IMG/VR virus record: IMGVR_UViG_3300033153_008048
Span: 1-45,884 of that record
Source: a virus
DNA length: 45,884 bases
Strand: one strand, 5' to 3'
Both the position numbers and the translations under genes were made by a program. The notes beneath the pieces are model-generated. The model was not told where the DNA came from, did no database searches, and saw only the letters and a program-made list of their open reading frames with translations. Below are positions 551 to 35,618 of the stretch, one piece after another; position 1 is the stretch's first letter; every line of letters starts with the position of its first letter.

Positions 551-3500
551 TCAGAAGGCCCCTTCGTCCTTCTCGCCCTGCTTGATTACATAGTCTGACC
601 ACCCCGCGACCTTCTTGAATCCTCTGACGAAATCCTCGGCACTCTGCGCGTCCTTCATCTCGGTCATCCCGTCGTAGACATTGATGCCCTGCTTGACCGG
701 GAGCCCCTTGATCAGGCCGGCAAGTTCACCGCCCTGGCGCAGGACATCGAGCCACATCTCCATGCTCAAGTCCTCGATGTCGACCGCCTGGATGAGCTGC
801 TGCCCCTCGCGGAATAGGCTGTCTAGGATCGTGCCCGAGGTCCAGGCTCTGAGGCCGAGCGCGGCGGAGAGCGCCGAGTGCATGAAGCCACCGAGGATGA
901 AGACACCGTTGAACGACCCCAGGAGCCCGGCCCTAATCTGCTCTTTGAGGCGGAACTCGAGGCCGTCTGATGCCCACTGGAAGAGCATCGGCAGGATGAA
1001 GTGGTAGATGATCATCGTCTTGATCCAATCCTGCGCCGTGATCCTGCCGGCGACATAGTCGTCGGTCGCGGAAAGCTCCTTGCGGAAATACTGGGTCGGC
1101 GCGGAGAGGAAGGTCGCCATGAGCCTCTGGATCGAGGACCCTCTCTGGAAGTAGGACTGCTGCGAGAGATCGGCAGACTGCTGCGAGGAGGTGAGCGCCT
1201 TCTCGAACTCGCGGATCGCCTCCTCATGGGTCTTGCCGAGCGTGTTCCGGTGATAGTTGTAGACTGGCCATCCACCGATATAAATCGCGCCACGGTCACC
1301 CCACCGCGTCATGAGCAGCAGGAAGTTCCTAAGGTTAGGATTCAACTGAAAAGCCGTCCACTCCTTCGAGTTCACGGCCTCGCGCAATTCGGGCGTGATG
1401 CTGAGTCCCCGTGAGAGCATCACCTCGGAATTCTCGAGGATACTGAGCTTCTCAAAGGTATCGGTCGCGAGATCACCGAGGCCGACCATGAAGTCCCTGG
1501 TGGGCATGGTATCGGCGAAGGCCGGGAAGGACATGAGCTGCTTGACCGCGATCGCGGGCTTGCCGGCCAGGACCGAGACGGTGTAGTTGTTCTTGATGAT
1601 GTTGAGCGAGGCCCAGTCGTTCGAGCGGTCTATCCCGCCCCGGGTGAAGTCCTCGATATTCCGGTCGATCATCGCGGTGACCTGCTTGCCGAAGTTCGCG
1701 GTGATGGCCTCGCGCACGGCGGCATCGTTAAAGATGCTATTAAACATCCTAATCTTCTTGGCCCACGCCTTGTAATGTTCGATCTGGGCGATGTGCTTCT
1801 GGATGATCTCGATATCGTTCTGCAGACCGAGTTCCCTGAGATTCTTCACGCGCTGCTTGCCGGCGGACGGGGTGATCGATCTCCGGTGCGCGATCTCGCC
1901 GAGCATCTCGTTCTCGAGGGCTTTGCGGTCCAAGACCACCCTGCGGATCGGGCTGTAGTTCTCGACCTGGGGGAGATTCACTCCGTTGATGTCGGAGTAG
2001 ACCGCGTTGAAGCCGGCGTAGTAGTCCCGGTAGAAATCGAGCTGCGCCTGGGCGAAGGCCTTGTCCTGCGGGGTTAGGAAGCCCTCGATCGCGGCCTTGA
2101 TCTCCGGGGTCCACCCCATCGATTTCTCGTGGGTGCCAAAGAGAGTGTCCTGCAGCCCCCGGTCTTGGAATTCCATCCACCGCTTCCTGGCCTCGGCGCG
2201 GGAGATGTTGAGCGTGATCAACTCCCCTTCGGTCTGACCCTCCTTCGGCTGCAGCCTGAAAGTCCCGAGATTCTGCTTCTCGGAGTCCGCCGCCCACCGC
2301 TCGGTGATCTCCCAGTCGCTCATCTCGCCCATGGCATCGGTCCACATCTTGCGGACCTTGAGGAGGTTCAATCGGTTCCCGCGCTTCTCCTCGGTCTCCT
2401 CGAGTTCTACGTCGGCAAGCTTGTTGAGCTGACTCTCGTTGGTCCGCGTGGACTTGTCGTTCCACGAGAGGCGGTTCATGATGTTGTTCCAACCCATCAG
2501 CCAGAGTGTGGCGCGGTTATACCATCCCCAGAGGGTGTCGTCCGCGTTCTCTTCCCCGGTCACCCTGATGCGATCCTTTGGCCGGCTGTCGATGATGCTG
2601 ACCGCGATCTTGCGCTTCTCCTCGAGGTCGGCCTCTTCACGCAAAAGCTTGATCTTGCTCAACTCCTTACCGCCCTGTTTGAGCGCCCGGATCGTGCGGA
2701 GGACATCCACCATCTGCTCGAGCGTCATCTCGTCACTGGCGGAGGTGAGCAGCAGCATCTTATTCTCGAGCGCCCGGACCACGCCTGGAATCTTGGTAGC
2801 GCCGGCATCATTGTCAGCGAGGTTCTTGTCAAGCTTTTCAGCCGCCTCGAGACCACTCAGCTTGGAGGCCTTCCGCATGGCGTTGAGCGTGTCCTGAATC
2901 AGCGGTGTGAAGCGGCCTTTTGGCACGGCCCCTTGGGTCCGAGGCTTGATGGTCTTCAGCTCCTTTCGGACAGCGGAGACGATCCTCCGCCGCGCCGATC
3001 GGTCCTCGAGGGCTTCAATCCTGGCCTCGATCGTGGGCATCGCACCAACGAACTTCTCCTGGCTCGTCATGGCCTTAATCGAATCAAGGAACTTGGCCTT
3101 GTCCGCCGGCTCGAGGCGGGAGCCCTGGATCAGATTTATGAGGTTCCTCTGGGCATTGGCGATCTCGTCCCGGGTCATCTTGGCGGCTTCCCGCGCCCCC
3201 TTGGCCTCTTTGCGGATTCCTTCCTTCAGGGCCTGGAACTGGGTCACCGTGGGCTCAACCGTGGGCTTAACGAACTCACCCACCCTCTTGCGCGTAGCAA
3301 GGGCCTCCTCAAGCTCTGCGATTCTGGCTTCGATACGGGTGATCTCTTCACCAGGGAACCCACCAACCCCAAGCTCTTCTTGACGGGTCCGTATACTGAG
3401 CGCCAGATCGAGTTGCTTATTCAGCTCCCTTTCGACCTCCACGACACTCATCGGGCCAGTCTCCTTAAAGCCGGCCTCCGCAATCTCCTGCTCCGTGGCA

Positions 3501-28574: not shown

Positions 28575-29774
28575 ATGAGCCATTTTACAGTGTTGGTGGT
28601 CGGAGAGAACCCAGAAAAGCAACTCGCCCCGTATCACGAGTTTGAATGTACCGGACAGGACGACGAGTTCGTGCAGGAAATCGACATCACAGAGGAAACG
28701 CGGTCTGAATACACCAAGGGTAAAGTGGGCCGTCTTCGCGACCCGGAGGGATTCCTCCACGACTCGTGCGACGACAAATTCTATCGCGACCCCACCGAGA
28801 AGGAGACGAAGGACATAGGGATTGGTGGGTCTGGATATGTCGGTAATCTCTACTACTGTTCCAAAGACTGGGGTGACGGGAAGGGCTACCGAGCCAAGGT
28901 CGGATTCATCCCCAACGGCTTTAAGGAGGTTGAAGTCAAAAGGAGTGAGGTCGAATCATTCCGCTCATTCGTCGAGGAATATCACGGAAAGACCATCGTT
29001 CCCTTTGGAGAGGAGCCTGACCTTAATGGTAGTGGCGACGGCATGGGTGAGAACGGTGGCAAGCACAAGTATGGTTACGCCTTGGTCGACAAAGAAGGCG
29101 AGGTTATAAAGATCGTCGATCGCACGAACCCCAACAAAAAATGGGACTGGCATCAGCTCGGCGGGAGATGGCGGGGAATGTTCAAGGTCAAGACTGGGGC
29201 GGATGCTCTGGTCGGGAATCCCGGTACTATCGAGAGGATTCATGGAATCAAAGAGCTGCCCAACGATGTGGCGGATCAGGCATACAAGCGCGATATCGAT
29301 TTCCAGGCCATGCGCGACGAGAAGGCCGATGAGGCCGGTAATCGTTACGATCGGCTGTCCAACCTCTTCGGCGGAAAGATTCCAGGGGTTGAGTTGCTCT
29401 GGAAGGATGTCCTGAAGGGCGAAGAGACCATCGAGGAAAAACGGAAAAAGTACAACGACCAGAGCGCACTCGTATCATTGGAAGCGATCCGCAAGCGCAA
29501 GGATTTGAATGAGGAAGACCGGAATCTGGTTGTTTGGTTGGACCTCGAGTCTTATCTCGGTGGTCGAGAAGCGTATGTTGGCCGAGCGATCCGAGATGCC
29601 GTCTGCACCTTCGCCGTGGTCAAGGATGGGAAATGGTACGAGCGCGGCGATATGGGTTGGTGGGGCTTCGTGTCTGACGAGAAGGACGGGGGAGCGTGGG
29701 CCAACGAGATGTACAAGCTCATCGAGTCGGTCCCTGGAGACACGCTCTTGTCGGTGTTCGATTGTCATATATAG
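28575..29774 (+). CDS. Conserved phage protein with MSHFTVLV N-terminus, 399 aa
   Basis: MSHFTVLVVGENPEKQLAPY and HEFECTGQDDEFVQEID mark a family I know as widespread uncharacterised phage and bacterial proteins. A second signature, KKWDWHQLGGRWRGMF, occurs near residue 190. It is Trp-rich in the C-terminal third. No catalytic motif is recognised. It has its own promoter (PR2) and GGGAGG ten bases upstream, so it is probably made in quantity early. Confidence 0.75.
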   Translation: MSHFTVLVVGENPEKQLAPYHEFECTGQDDEFVQEIDITEETRSEYTKGKVGRLRDPEGFLHDSCDDKFYRDPTEKETKDIGIGGSGYVGNLYYCSKDWGDGKGYRAKVGFIPNGFKEVEVKRSEVESFRSFVEEYHGKTIVPFGEEPDLNGSGDGMGENGGKHKYGYALVDKEGEVIKIVDRTNPNKKWDWHQLGGRWRGMFKVKTGADALVGNPGTIERIHGIKELPNDVADQAYKRDIDFQAMRDEKADEAGNRYDRLSNLFGGKIPGVELLWKDVLKGEETIEEKRKKYNDQSALVSLEAIRKRKDLNEEDRNLVVWLDLESYLGGREAYVGRAIRDAVCTFAVVKDGKWYERGDMGWWGFVSDEKDGGAWANEMYKLIESVPGDTLLSVFDCHI

Positions 29775-30433: not shown

Positions 30434-31360
30434 ATGATCACAGAAGAGCAGCGAAAAAAAAGGAAGGAGTCGATCGGATCGTCTGACGCGGCGGCGATCC
30501 TGGGGCTCTCGAGATGGAAGACCCCGCTCGAAGTCTGGAGTGAGAAGACCGGGGCGGTCGAGCCCGAGGACATCAGCGACAAGCTGCCGATCATCATCGG
30601 CAATGAGTTGGAGGATGTTGTAGCGAAGCTCTTCACGCTAAAAACTGGCAAGAAGGTCCACCGCGTGAACGAGACCGTCTACGACAAAGAGTTCCCATTC
30701 CTCGCGGTCAACCTCGATCGGCGCGTGGTCGGCGAAGACGCTGTCCTCGAGGCCAAGACTTGTGGGGCATGGGCCGCTAAAGAATGGTCCGGGGAAGAGG
30801 ACATCCCCCAGGAAGTGATCGTCCAGGTTCTCTTCCAACTAATGGTCACCGGGAAGCAGCGCGGATATGCCGCCGTCCTCATCGGTGGGAACCAGGACTT
30901 CAGGTGGAGAGTCGTCGAGCGCGACGAGAAGGTGATCAGGCAGATAAGGGTGAAGTGCGTGGAGTTCTGGCAGAAATATATCGTGCCGAGGGTCATGCCA
31001 CAGGTGGTGACCAAGGACGATGCCCCGGTCCTCTACAGGCTCTTCCCCCACGGTCAGGAGGTCGCCGCCATAGAACTCGGCGAGGAGGTCAACAGACTGG
31101 CGGACAGCATCAAGGGCCTCCAGGCTGACGAGAAGGTCCTGAAGGGTGTGATCGAGAAGGAAAAGAACATGATCAAGGCGATCATGGGAGAGAACGCTGC
31201 CGGGATGAGCGACCGCTTCAAGATCACCTGGAAGAACCAGACCACGCTGCGCCTCGACCAGAAGGAGCTGAAGGATAAGGAGCCCGACATCTACAGCCAG
31301 TACGCAACGCCGTCGCAGAGCCGTGTCCTCAGGATCGCGGCCATCAAACCCAAGAAGTAA
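30434..31360 (+). CDS. YqaJ-type (lambda Exo-like) recombination exonuclease, 308 aa
   Basis: The N-terminus RKESIGSSDAAAILGLSRWK followed by TPLEVWSEKTG is typical of YqaJ nucleases. Catalytic positions are visible: E58 in GNELEDVV, D95 in FLAVNLDRRV, E106 and K108 in VLEAKTCGAW, and Q131/Q135 in VQVLFQLMV. It resects double-stranded ends to give 3' tails. The C-terminal 90 residues are helical. It is followed nine bases later by RecT, its usual partner. Confidence 0.9.
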   Translation: MITEEQRKKRKESIGSSDAAAILGLSRWKTPLEVWSEKTGAVEPEDISDKLPIIIGNELEDVVAKLFTLKTGKKVHRVNETVYDKEFPFLAVNLDRRVVGEDAVLEAKTCGAWAAKEWSGEEDIPQEVIVQVLFQLMVTGKQRGYAAVLIGGNQDFRWRVVERDEKVIRQIRVKCVEFWQKYIVPRVMPQVVTKDDAPVLYRLFPHGQEVAAIELGEEVNRLADSIKGLQADEKVLKGVIEKEKNMIKAIMGENAAGMSDRFKITWKNQTTLRLDQKELKDKEPDIYSQYATPSQSRVLRIAAIKPKK

Positions 31361-31369
31361 GGAGAGAAC

Positions 31370-32464
31370 ATGGAGACCGAGAAGGGAGAAGCACCCGCCG
31401 CAAAATTAGGGAAGGCCCTCGCGACCGAGGAGGTCAAGATAAGGCCCGGGATGAGCCTCCACGCTCTTCTCAAGACGACCACGATCAAGAGCAAGTTCAG
31501 CGATGTCCTCGAGAAGAAGGCCCCGGCCTTCATGTCGAGCGTGGTCTCGGCGGTATCAGCAAACAAGCATCTACAGAACTGTGAGCCGATGTCGATCATC
31601 TCGTCTGCGATGGTCGCCGCGACCCTGGACCTGCCCATCAACCCGCAGCTCGGCATGGCGCACATGGTTCCCTACAAGGGAGTCGCGACATTCCAGATCG
31701 GGTGGAAGGGCATCTACCAACTCGCGATGCGATCGGGTCAGTACCTCACGATCAACATCGCGCAGGTCAACGAGGGTGAACTCGTCAAGCACGACAAGTT
31801 CAAGGGGACCATGGAGTTCGATGCCGAGCAGAAGAGGAGCGACAAGGTGATCGGGACTGTCCTCTACTTCAAGCTCCTCAACGGGTTCGAGAAGTGGTTC
31901 TACATGACCACCGTGCAGCTCGAGGCTCACGCAAAGAGATACTCGCAGAATTACAAAAAGTACGGGACCGGTGTCTGGAAGGACAACTTCCCGGCTATGT
32001 GCGAGAAGACCGTCGCGAAGCTCGGCCTCTCAAAGTTCGGCCCGCTGACCGTCGAGATGCAGATCGCGTTCAAGTCGGATCAGGCCGCGATCCTGCCAGA
32101 CGGTGAACCCGACTACATCGATGGCGCTCTGGCCGAAGAGGAGGAGACTTCCGCGACGGACACGGGCAAGGAAAAGAAGAAGAACGACACCAACAACTCC
32201 CAGTCGCAGGAGATGGCCCTCGCGAAGGAGGACCAGTACCTCGTCAAGGCTGTGATCGCCGGTAAGAGGGGCGACACCAAGGTCTGGATGATCGTGACCA
32301 TGATCGGCGCTCAGTTCGAGACCGATAAGCCTGAGGTCGAGGCGGTCGCGACTGCTGCGATCAAGAGCGGGAACCTCGTGAGGATCGTGGGAGACGACAG
32401 CAAGCAGTCCCAGGTCACCGAGATCGAGCCGCTCGGAAAGCCGAAGAAGACTCGCAAGAAGTAG
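31370..32464 (+). CDS. recT: RecT-type single-strand annealing protein, 364 aa
   Basis: Contains NCEPMSIISSAMVAATLDLP, NPQLGMAHMVPYKGVATFQI and GWKGIYQLAMRSGQYLTINI, the core signature of RecT. It anneals complementary strands made by the upstream exonuclease. The C-terminus after residue 250 is a Lys/Asp/Thr-rich linker followed by an extra domain (KEDQYLVKAVIAGKRGDTKV) not needed for the RecT core. Confidence 0.93.
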   Translation: METEKGEAPAAKLGKALATEEVKIRPGMSLHALLKTTTIKSKFSDVLEKKAPAFMSSVVSAVSANKHLQNCEPMSIISSAMVAATLDLPINPQLGMAHMVPYKGVATFQIGWKGIYQLAMRSGQYLTINIAQVNEGELVKHDKFKGTMEFDAEQKRSDKVIGTVLYFKLLNGFEKWFYMTTVQLEAHAKRYSQNYKKYGTGVWKDNFPAMCEKTVAKLGLSKFGPLTVEMQIAFKSDQAAILPDGEPDYIDGALAEEEETSATDTGKEKKKNDTNNSQSQEMALAKEDQYLVKAVIAGKRGDTKVWMIVTMIGAQFETDKPEVEAVATAAIKSGNLVRIVGDDSKQSQVTEIEPLGKPKKTRKK

Positions 32465-32530: not shown

Positions 32531-33073
32531 ATGAAGATAATCGAAGCAATGAAGCTGCGGAAGCGACTGGTCATCAAGGCCGGCGACCTCCGCAAGAAGA
32601 TCAGCACGAACTGCGCGGGGATGGAGGATGAGGAGCCCGCGTACAAGGAGCCGATGGGACAGATCAAGGAGTGGCTCCAGTCCCACTTCGACATCGTGCA
32701 GCTCATGGGGGAACTCGCCATCGCGATCCAGAAGACGAACCTGGATACCGAGGTCACGATCGTCCTTGGCGAGAAAGAGGTCACCAAGAGCTTGGCCGAG
32801 TGGGTCCTGCGCCGGCGGGAACTGGCGAACATGGACAAGGCGGCTTGGCAGGGTCTCGGCGATCGCGGACTTCAGCCGAAGGCCTTCACCGACAAGACGA
32901 CCAACGAGCCCGTGCTGATCAAGATCAAGCGGTTCTTCGATCCCAAGCTGCGGGACGCGATGGTGGAGCTGTACACGCACGAGCCCTCGCGGATCGACGC
33001 GAAGCTCGAGACGGTGAACGCGACGACAGACCTCACGATCGATGTGAAGGTTGATGAAGACAAACTCGTCTAA
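32531..33073 (+). CDS. Helical protein of unknown function, possibly DIP1984-like, 180 aa
   Basis: CAAGGAGGATGC places the start at the ATG at 32531. The order EAMKLRKRLVIKAGDLRKKI, a negatively charged spacer, LAIAIQKTNLDTEV and LAEWVLRRREL resembles DIP1984/DUF6847 proteins, which are helical and of unknown function. The resemblance is from memory and needs a profile search. It follows RecT and precedes the structured non-coding region. Confidence 0.6.
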   Translation: MKIIEAMKLRKRLVIKAGDLRKKISTNCAGMEDEEPAYKEPMGQIKEWLQSHFDIVQLMGELAIAIQKTNLDTEVTIVLGEKEVTKSLAEWVLRRRELANMDKAAWQGLGDRGLQPKAFTDKTTNEPVLIKIKRFFDPKLRDAMVELYTHEPSRIDAKLETVNATTDLTIDVKVDEDKLV

Positions 33074-33177
33074 AGAACTCCTCCCGCCCAACCTCGCCTC
33101 GTCAGGCGATGAAGATGGGGTATGCTGTGGCACGGCGGGAAAGACGCAGAGACGGTTGGGGCCGAATGGCCGCGCAA

Positions 33178-33352
33178 CCAACAGATCAGCGAGGGGATCG
33201 GCAGCACTGCCCTCGTACAATTTTGGTTCTCGCCCACGGGTAGAGATAAAAACTGGAAAATGGGAACGCCAAGTCCTGAGCGATATCGGGTCACCAAGCG
33301 TGGGTAATACTCGCCATTTAAGCGAGTTGGGGTTCGAATCCCCGACTGTTGG
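33178..33352 (+). ncRNA. Expanded tRNA-like element 1 (candidate)
   Basis: CCAACAG (33178-33184) can pair perfectly with CTGTTGG (33346-33352). Inside are a hairpin in D-arm position (33190-33215), about 93 bases with no clear fold, a six-pair hairpin with loop CATTTAA (33309-33327; anticodon-like TTT, but A instead of U at position 33), and a T-arm TGGGG-TTCGAAT-CCCCG one base before the closing strand. The order is that of a tRNA with an insertion and no variable loop. Confidence 0.4.
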
Positions 33353-33557
33353 CCGGGGGAAACCTCGGGCAGCGTTAAGGTTCAAGGCTCCAGTCAGCAA
33401 GGGGTCAGGTTCAAGCCACTCATGGTTGAAGTCAGTAAGCGTCAAGGGTAAACCGGGATCGAACACCGCCCGGAATGTCCTCGAAAAAGTTGATGTTGTT
33501 CCCGTTGGTCCCAGAACTTCCGAGGCTTCCTTCTCGGGGGGCGAGAGCCACAATATT

Positions 33558-33745
33558 GAGATGCGGCATGGAGGGGTAGAACGATCGGTTTACGAGGGAC
33601 CGTCTGAAATGTCGAATCCCGCCGATCGACTGCTAGGTGAGTCCATGGTTCCTGCGACCGTGAGGTCGAGAACAGGGCGAAAACGAATAGGTCATTGCGA
33701 GACGCGACCGAAAGCCCCATCGTGGGTGTCGAATCCCACCATCTC
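33558..33745 (+). ncRNA. Expanded tRNA-like element 2 (candidate)
   Basis: GAGATG (33558-33563) can pair with CATCTC (33740-33745), directly after a five-pair T-arm with loop TGTCGAAT (33722-33739). A perfect 7-bp helix CGATCGG/CCGATCG (33582-33588, 33622-33628) and two further hairpins lie inside. D-loop-like GGGGTAGA occurs at 33573-33580. The same architecture as element 1; the closing helix is shorter. Confidence 0.3.
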
Positions 33746-33753
33746 TAACTTTA

Positions 33754-33806
33754 GTGATCCTCTACACCTAGGGATGGGTGTCCCGCAAGGGACTCGGGCG
33801 GATCAC
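33754..33806 (+). ncRNA. Compact three-way-junction RNA (candidate)
   Basis: A perfect 7-bp closing helix GTGATCC/GGATCAC encloses ACACC-(8)-GGTGT and CCC-GCAA-GGG with a GNRA loop. No known riboswitch or ribozyme consensus is evident. It lies just ahead of the ATPase gene and could shape its leader. Confidence 0.4.
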
Positions 33807-33857
33807 AGGGGGCCGGGGTTTGGAAGACTCCTGGTCTCCGCACTTTAGGAGGATACC

Positions 33858-35618
33858 GTGAAGATAAAATTCGCAGAAGGACTATCGTTCCCGATCGATG
33901 CAGCGACCCAGACCTTCGGGATTCTTGCCAGAAAAGGCGCGGGCAAGACCTATGCCGGCATGAAGCTTGCTGAAGGATTCGCGGAGAGCGGGCTTCCCTT
34001 CGTGGTCTTGGACCCTCTCGGCGTTTGGTGGGGTCTTCGGGCGAACCATGACGGGAAGAAGCCCGGGATACCTGTCGTCGTCATAGGCGGGGCACACGGT
34101 GATTTGCCGATAGAAGAGACTGCGGGCCGCATCCTGGCCGAGTTCGTTTCCTCTGGGACCTCGATGGTGATCCTCGATCTGAGCGATCTTAGGAAGGCAG
34201 CGATGGTCCGGTTCGCGACTGAGTTCTGCGAAGAACTCTTCGAGCAAGCTAATCGGAATAGAAGGCCTCTACATCTGTTCGTCGACGAGGCTCAGACATT
34301 CGCTCCGCAATTCATCGATCCGAGGAAGGCTCAGTTGCTAGGGGCCATGGAGGACTTGGTCTGCAAGGGGCGAAGCCGAGGACTCGGGATCACCATGATG
34401 AGTCAGCGCCCATCGATGGTCAACAAGAATCTCCTCAGTCAGGTGGAAGTCCTCGTCGCCATGCAGACATCTGGGAGGCACGATAGAAAGGCCCTCTTGG
34501 AGTGGGTCGACGCGAATGGTACTCCAGATGAAGCGGGGAAGCTGTTCAACTCCCTGGCAAAGCTCCACATCGGTGAGGCCTGGATATGGAGCCCTTCTTG
34601 GCTCCGCCACCTAGCCAAGCATAAAATCCTGAAGAAGTGGACCTTCGATTCGTCGAGAACTCCCAAGGTCGGTGAGACGAAACGCGAACCGAAGCGCCTA
34701 GCCAAGGTAGACCTCGAGGCGTTGCGCGGTCAGATGACCGAGACCGTCGAAAGGGCGAAGGCCAAAGACCCGACCGAGATGAAGCGCAGGATCGTCAAGA
34801 TGCAAAGTGAGAATGGCCGGCTGACCGCGAAGGTGGATCAGCTCACCACCAAGATCGAGTCTCTTTTGAAGATCAAGCCAGTAAGTCCTAAGGGGAAGAC
34901 CGTCTCCGAGGCCCAGATAAAACGCATCGAGAAAGTGGTCAGCAGAACAGAAAAGATATCGGAGCAAATCCGATCCCTTTGTGGCTCTGGATTCAAGGCT
35001 ACGGATGGATTACAAAAAGCTGCCGCCGATCTGCTCCAATCGACAGCAGTTCCGAAGGTACAGGCCATTCCCGTTGCTGTCCAAAAGCCATGGGTTCCTC
35101 GTACCACGACCCCCATGCCCCCGCCAAAGCTGCAGAGTAACGGGGACGACTCCCACCGGTTGGGAAAGGGTGAGACGGCGATCCTCAAGGTCATAGCCCA
35201 ATCACCAGACGGGGCAACGAGAGAGCAGATCACCGTCATGACCGGCTACAAGAGATCGAGCCGGGACACTTATTTGCAGCGCCTGACCCAGGCAAGCCAC
35301 GTTATCAGACGGGGAGATAGCCTATGCCCCACCGATGCGGGCATTTCTGCCCTCGGTACCGACTACGAGCCGCTGCCGACCGGCGAGGCATTGCGCCGGC
35401 ACTGGCTCGATCGGCTTCCTTCTGGAGAGAAAGCAATCCTCGATATCCTGATCAAGGCCTATCCAAACGCCTTGGAGCGGGACGCTATCAGCGAGTCCAC
35501 CGACTACAAACGATCGAGCCGGGATACCTACCTTCAGCGTTTGTCGGCGAGAAAACTCATCATTTCCGAAGGGCGGGGATTGGTGAGAGCATCAGATATT
35601 CTTTTCACGGAGGCGTAA
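33858..35618 (+). CDS. HerA/FtsK-type ATPase with two C-terminal winged helices, 586 aa
   Basis: Walker A GILARKGAGKTYAG (K30, T31) and Walker B LHLFVDEAQTFAP (D143, E144) with MMSQRPSMVNKNLLSQ and LVAMQTSGRHDRKAL identify a HerA/DUF87 hexameric DNA translocase. Residues of about 290-345 form a coiled coil. A Pro-rich linker leads to two repeated winged helices, each with YKRSSRDTYLQRL (from residues 464 and 550). GTG start with TAGGAGGATACC upstream. HerA ATPases usually work with a NurA-type nuclease; none is adjacent, although the YqaJ nuclease lies in the same block. Confidence 0.85.
   Translation: MKIKFAEGLSFPIDAATQTFGILARKGAGKTYAGMKLAEGFAESGLPFVVLDPLGVWWGLRANHDGKKPGIPVVVIGGAHGDLPIEETAGRILAEFVSSGTSMVILDLSDLRKAAMVRFATEFCEELFEQANRNRRPLHLFVDEAQTFAPQFIDPRKAQLLGAMEDLVCKGRSRGLGITMMSQRPSMVNKNLLSQVEVLVAMQTSGRHDRKALLEWVDANGTPDEAGKLFNSLAKLHIGEAWIWSPSWLRHLAKHKILKKWTFDSSRTPKVGETKREPKRLAKVDLEALRGQMTETVERAKAKDPTEMKRRIVKMQSENGRLTAKVDQLTTKIESLLKIKPVSPKGKTVSEAQIKRIEKVVSRTEKISEQIRSLCGSGFKATDGLQKAAADLLQSTAVPKVQAIPVAVQKPWVPRTTTPMPPPKLQSNGDDSHRLGKGETAILKVIAQSPDGATREQITVMTGYKRSSRDTYLQRLTQASHVIRRGDSLCPTDAGISALGTDYEPLPTGEALRRHWLDRLPSGEKAILDILIKAYPNALERDAISESTDYKRSSRDTYLQRLSARKLIISEGRGLVRASDILFTEA

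What the first reader, a model, noticed from the sequence alone, without database searches (positions are those of the whole stretch)
33074..33857. 784-base structured, apparently non-coding RNA region in an otherwise fully packed phage genome
Between the recT-linked gene and the HerA-like ATPase lies a stretch with at least ten good helices, two with GNRA loops, and three T-arm-like loops, one matching the tRNA consensus GGTTCGAATCC. Everywhere else in this genome the genes overlap or nearly touch. The open frame through it lacks the G/C-rich third positions of its neighbours. It is not a normal tRNA cluster: no canonical cloverleaf could be built. It could be an array of strongly degenerate or expanded tRNA-like RNAs, or an unknown RNA tied to the ATPase or recombination genes.
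Basis: partly seen in the sequence, partly recalled or inferred. Interest (0 to 1): 0.85.

Follow-up and report, generated by a model that had tools for sequence, protein, structure and literature searches.

The report
Orphan structured RNA in a phage
A virus of bacteria carries, squeezed between two genes, a 784-base stretch that makes no protein and instead looks like one large folded RNA decorated with hairpins that copy part of a transfer RNA; no relative of it is known, so what it does is still open.

Summary
33074-33857 is a non-coding gap between a DIP1984-like gene and a HerA-like ATPase gene. Its 265-codon frame scores like a wrong frame and matches no protein family. On the + strand only, it holds four GNRA-capped hairpins against about 0.1 expected (0 of 2000-3000 shuffles; the rest of the window has 0-1 per 784 nt). 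It folds more stably than shuffles (z about -2.1), with long-range helices.

The tRNA resemblance is real but limited to T arms. 33325-33347 is a canonical T-loop hairpin, and 33709-33745 matches the 3' end of bacterial tRNA-Ser at 89%. With T arms removed, no tRNA similarity remains above chance. ARAGORN and the tRNA, GOLLD, ROOL and group I models find nothing.

No relative turned up in viral contigs, phages, plasmids or about 790 bacterial genomes, so covariation could not be tested.

Best reading: an orphan large structured phage RNA with T-arm-mimic hairpins, comparable in setting and size to GOLLD/ROOL but not a member of either. Rivals: a decayed tRNA array, or a long leader of the ATPase gene. 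Function is inferred, not shown.

The parts
33074..33857 (+). whole non-coding stretch, inferred large structured RNA
   Evidence: no periodicity, non-coding codon score, GNRA enrichment, fold z about -2.1
33353..33368 (+). GNRA hairpin CCGGGG-GAAA-CCUCGG
   Evidence: pair probability 1.00
33655..33668 (+). GNRA hairpin CGACC-GUGA-GGUCG
   Evidence: 0.99
33764..33781 (+). GNRA hairpin ACACCUA-GGGA-UGGGUGU (competes with helix 33739-33747/33769-33777)
33780..33793 (+). GNRA hairpin GUCCC-GCAA-GGGAC
   Evidence: 1.00
33325..33347 (+). canonical tRNA T-arm-like hairpin, 8 bp, loop UUCGAAU
   Evidence: nhmmer tRNA profile E 0.0028 over the window; CM R1 13.3 bits, T arm only
33709..33748 (+). T-arm-like segment resembling the tRNA-Ser 3' end; extra G in the loop (UGUCGAAU)
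   Evidence: blastn 89-93% to tRNA-Ser 3' ends, matches in 9 of 379 genomes, E about 2e-4 per genome
33574..33625 (+). weak tRNA-Arg-like segment containing GUCGAAUCCC, T stem absent
   Evidence: local alignment score 38, equal to the 95th percentile of shuffles; colinear weak profile hits; conditional p 0.175
33084..33801 (+). predicted closing helix 33084-33089/33796-33801
   Evidence: pair probability 0.95
33114..33721 (+). predicted long-range helix 33114-33121/33714-33721 (8 bp)
   Evidence: 0.93
33133..33624 (+). predicted long-range helix 33133-33140/33617-33624 (8 bp)
   Evidence: 0.91
33224..33550 (+). predicted long-range helix 33224-33235/33539-33550 (12 bp)
   Evidence: 0.95; inverted repeat I1
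33259..33506 (+). predicted long-range helix 33259-33267/33498-33506 (9 bp)
   Evidence: 0.97
33739..33806 (+). possible 3' pseudoknot: 33739-33747/33769-33777 with 33754-33760/33800-33806
   Evidence: complementarity seen in sequence and folds; not statistically tested
33808..33839 (+). terminal hairpin just before the HerA-like gene's ribosome-binding site; no U tract
   Evidence: 0.94; no terminator
32531..33073 (+). upstream gene, DIP1984/DUF6847-like, unknown function
   Evidence: below curated cut-offs
33858..35618 (+). downstream gene, HerA-like ATPase
31370..32464 (+). recT

Best explanation
The stretch encodes, on the + strand, one large (about 0.75 kb) structured non-coding RNA of a podovirus-like phage. 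It lies inside the early recE/recT-DIP1984-HerA gene block. A branched fold (long-range helices, a closing helix joining the two ends) carries GNRA-capped hairpins, which typically dock into helices, and two hairpins that mimic the T arm of tRNA. Shown: non-coding, strand-specific excess of GNRA hairpins, T-arm mimicry. Inferred: it is made as part of the early operon transcript (no promoter or terminator of its own was found), released or left in place, and acts as an RNA in trans during infection. Its T-arm mimics would let it be bound or modified by tRNA-handling host factors, or serve as tertiary-contact modules. It would work in the manner of the large ornate phage RNAs GOLLD and ROOL, without being one of them.
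For: Coding excluded on composition and by absence of protein families. Four GNRA hairpins on +, none on -; 0.1 expected, 0 of 2000-3000 shuffles, 0-1 in other 784-nt blocks. Fold energy z -2.1 on + (4 of 150 shuffles), while the flanking coding segments are at z -0.5 and +0.4. Long-range helices of 8-12 bp with probability above 0.9. T-arm resemblance beyond shuffles and on + only. A compact phage genome that keeps 784 nt of non-coding DNA exactly between two genes.
Against: No relative was found, so no covariation. The number of well-defined pairs is not unusual (15 of 120 shuffles reach it). No promoter or terminator. The frame through it is open for 265 codons (chance about 0.4%). Nothing ties it to a function.
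Confidence: 0.5

Rival explanations
1. Remains of a phage tRNA gene array (tRNA-Tyr-, Arg- and Ser-like units) that has decayed by substitutions and small indels; the surviving structure is leftover T arms and variable arms, without present function.
For: T arms at 33325-33347 and 33722-33739; the segment 33709-33745 aligns with the variable arm, T arm and acceptor of tRNA-Ser at 89%; mean alignment score to 83 tRNAs 26.6 against a shuffle maximum of 23.9; element A upstream of its T arm is colinear with tRNA-Tyr at p about 0.01.
Against: With T arms removed, similarity is exactly at shuffle level (max 28 against 28.6); decay should not spare T arms alone. tRNA models find no body. Strand-specific GNRA hairpins at four places are not explained. 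No intact tRNA is present, and dead DNA is unusual in a packed phage genome.
Confidence: 0.25
2. A very long structured leader of the HerA-like gene: it is part of the mRNA and controls translation of the ATPase, for example by pairing the CU-rich 5' end (33079-33086) with the AGGAGG ribosome-binding site.
For: Ends directly at the ribosome-binding site; 33079-33083 can pair with 33849-33853 (probability 0.50); same strand.
Against: Any CU-rich stretch pairs with AGGAGG; 780 nt is far longer than usual leaders; other HerA-like homologues have no such leader.
Confidence: 0.15
3. An orphan protein of 265 codons with unusual composition (a young or overprinted gene).
For: The frame 33051-33848 is open throughout and sits like a gene: it overlaps the previous stop and ends 9 nt before the next start.
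Against: No codon periodicity, no codon bias in any frame, no family.
Confidence: 0.04
4. A DNA-level element such as a replication origin or packaging signal.
For: Long non-coding stretch in the recombination/replication block.
Against: No iterons or AT-rich part; the structural excess is strand-specific and of RNA type (GNRA loops).
Confidence: 0.05

Closest known systems
GOLLD RNA (Rfam RF02032)
   Same: Phage/prophage, many members over 800 nt, ornate fold, tRNAs sometimes in the linker region (PMC12286853)
   Different: No match to the model at E<=10; no tRNA nearby
ROOL RNA (Rfam RF03087)
   Same: Large structured RNA of phages and prophages, often near tRNA islands (PMC12286853)
   Different: No match at E<=10 (its control also rang nowhere); no tRNA island here
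Phage tRNA arrays
   Same: T-arm hairpins with consensus loop
   Different: No cloverleaf, tRNA bodies not detectable
tmRNA and viral tRNA-like structures (from general knowledge)
   Same: RNA with a T arm but not an ordinary tRNA
   Different: ARAGORN finds no tmRNA (relaxed); no acceptor stem shown

Membership tests
GOLLD RNA | match to covariance model RF02032 | tested here: not met
   (E<=10)
GOLLD RNA | homo-oligomeric cage | not testable with these tools
   needs cryo-EM
ROOL RNA | match to covariance model RF03087 | tested here: not met
   the control rang nowhere, so sensitivity is not proven; cmscan searches also negative
tRNA gene array | cloverleaf found by ARAGORN or RF00005 | tested here: not met
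   relaxed ARAGORN at chance level
tRNA gene array | T arm with TTCRANN loop | tested here: met
   33325-33347; second with a loop insertion
tRNA gene array | D arm, anticodon arm and acceptor at the right distance | tested here: not met
   (only element A at p about 0.01)
group I intron | match to RF00028 | tested here: not met
tmRNA | found by ARAGORN | tested here: not met
any structured RNA family | covarying helices among relatives | not testable with these tools
   no relative found in the collections allowed

The most novel reading that the evidence does not exclude
A new class of large phage RNA in which tRNA T-arm mimics and GNRA hairpins are modules of one ornate fold, perhaps assembling or capturing tRNA-handling host machinery during infection.
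Probability: 0.25. Interest if true: 0.8.

Novelty: new variant of a known kind. Interest (0 to 1): 0.5.

Why it matters
Large ornate RNAs of phages are few, and their functions are unknown. Another unrelated one, in a small podovirus-like genome without tRNAs and with T-arm mimics, would show that such RNAs arose more than once. It would also offer a compact model in which deletion and pull-down could test what they do. If it is instead a decayed tRNA array, it would be a rare case of a compact phage keeping about 0.8 kb of dead tRNA DNA.

Tried and rejected
tRNA cluster: ARAGORN strict, relaxed, with introns, and shuffled controls; Rfam tRNA and an own type II tRNA model with filters off.

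GOLLD, ROOL and group I models; all Rfam at permissive cut-off.

Protein reading of the frame.

Homologues by DNA, by neighbouring proteins, by two DNA patterns and by two single-sequence covariance models: none. The pattern hits were ordinary tRNAs or unrelated elements.

First impression of three degenerate tRNAs from full-length alignments: weakened, because the signal vanishes when T arms are removed. The library still contains tRNA-Ser of genome G283, which had been found by similarity to the region; the T-arm signal does not depend on it alone (tRNA-Tyr and Asn of L040 were not so chosen).

Well-definedness of the ensemble as a test: not significant.

Low periodicity alone is weak evidence, since other stretches are also weak; the codon-usage score is the better test.

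Full report
The window is an IMG/VR virus record of 45,884 bases with podovirus-like structural genes: head-tail connector, major head protein, terminase and tail protein. The stretch in question lies in the + strand early block: YqaJ/RecE-like exonuclease 30434-31360, RecT 31370-32464, a DIP1984/DUF6847-like protein 32531-33073, then the stretch, then a HerA-like ATPase 33858-35618.

Is it coding? The frame 33051-33848 is open for 265 codons and sits like a gene. An open frame this long arises in about 0.4% of Markov sequences of the same composition, which is the one point in favour of a protein. Base composition shows no 3-base periodicity. GC at the three codon positions is equal. A codon-usage score trained on the other genes puts the frame at -0.24 bits per codon against -0.26 and -0.16 in the wrong frames, while every other gene tested scores best in its own frame. 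No Pfam, PHROG, NCBIfam or PDB match, and only insignificant tblastn matches in phages (E about 1-3). I treat it as non-coding.

Is it structured? Hairpins with a GNRA tetraloop and a stem of at least 5 bp (at most one G-U) number four on the + strand: 33353-33368, 33655-33668, 33764-33781 and 33780-33793. There are none on the - strand. Shuffles give about 0.1, and none of 2000-3000 reached four. The rest of the window has 0.06 per 784 nt, and the result holds over several settings except stems of 6 or more without G-U. The fold energy is 2.1 standard deviations below dinucleotide shuffles on + (4 of 150) and 1.4 on -; flanking coding segments of the same length are at -0.5 and +0.4. Predicted long-range helices include 33224-33235/33539-33550 (12 bp) and a closing helix 33084-33089/33796-33801, all above 0.9 probability. 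The number of high-probability pairs overall is not unusual, so the exact fold is uncertain.

Is it tRNA? ARAGORN finds none, and relaxed settings give background numbers. Rfam's tRNA model gives nothing at E<=10. Yet tRNA resemblance is real. blastn against 379 genomes found tRNA-Ser 3' ends matching 33709-33745 at about 89%. Local alignments to a library of 83 tRNAs score higher than in 400 shuffles, on + only. A tRNA profile's two best places in the whole window are 33313-33346 (E 0.0028) and 33717-33745 (E 0.12). When the library is cut into the part before the T arm and the T arm with acceptor, all the signal sits in the latter: 5' parts max 28 against 28.6 in shuffles, 3' parts mean 22.6 against a shuffle maximum of 20.8. 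A type II tRNA covariance model run without filters aligns only the T arms. Upstream of the T arm at 33325 a colinear match to tRNA-Tyr has p about 0.01; the other two elements are not significant. So the RNA carries T-arm mimics, not tRNAs; descent from tRNAs remains possible.

Is it known? No Rfam family at gathering cut-off, and only two chance-level matches far below gathering at the permissive one; GOLLD, ROOL and group I separately negative (for ROOL the control search also rang nowhere). GOLLD and ROOL are the closest in kind: large ornate RNAs of phages and prophages, often near tRNA islands, forming RNA-only cages of unknown function (PMC12286853). Membership fails on the model match; the likeness is in size, setting and ornateness only.

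Relatives. DNA searches of phages and plasmids, protein-guided searches of viral contigs and genomes, two DNA patterns and two single-sequence covariance models found none. Sixteen loci with HerA-like relatives were screened upstream of the ATPase: none has a comparable long non-coding stretch; the two with locally weak periodicity that I read (L022, L020) look like ordinary short genes. Covariation, the decisive test, therefore could not be made.

Verdict. Mechanism beyond structure is inference.

Noticed in passing
L053:326-448 (+), L056:336-458 (-), L061:448-562 (+): Three viral contigs share a tRNA-like RNA of about 115 nt (7-bp acceptor-like stem, incomplete in one of the three; T arm GGTTCGAAYCC; CCCC-GCAA-GGGG hairpin; extra 7-bp helix instead of a normal anticodon region; 30 consensus pairs, 5 with changes on both sides). 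ARAGORN misses it, only a weak tRNA-Sec match (E 0.02), no match in phage records.
   Followed up: partly
L054, L058, L060, L064, L066-L069 (e.g. L064:3570-3650): A conserved non-coding element GCGTCAGGGATGGAAGCCCGCAAGGGCCAAGACC...GGCTTGG lies in or next to several hundred bases of low-periodicity DNA in eight viral contigs; no Rfam family in L064.
   Followed up: partly
window 33764-33793: A hairpin with loop UAGGGAUG directly followed by a CCC-GCAA-GGG hairpin resembles the same pair of hairpins in L061/L053, but those loci were found by a pattern demanding part of it.
   Followed up: partly
window 28575-29774: phrog_10079 protein of unknown function, present in 47 phage records of Pseudomonas, Erwinia, Bordetella, Burkholderia, Caulobacter and others.
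   Followed up: no
window 33858-35618: Phage HerA-like ATPase with homologues in viral contigs and in contigs of Nocardioides, Microbacterium, Acidobacteria and Gemmatimonadetes genomes.
   Followed up: no
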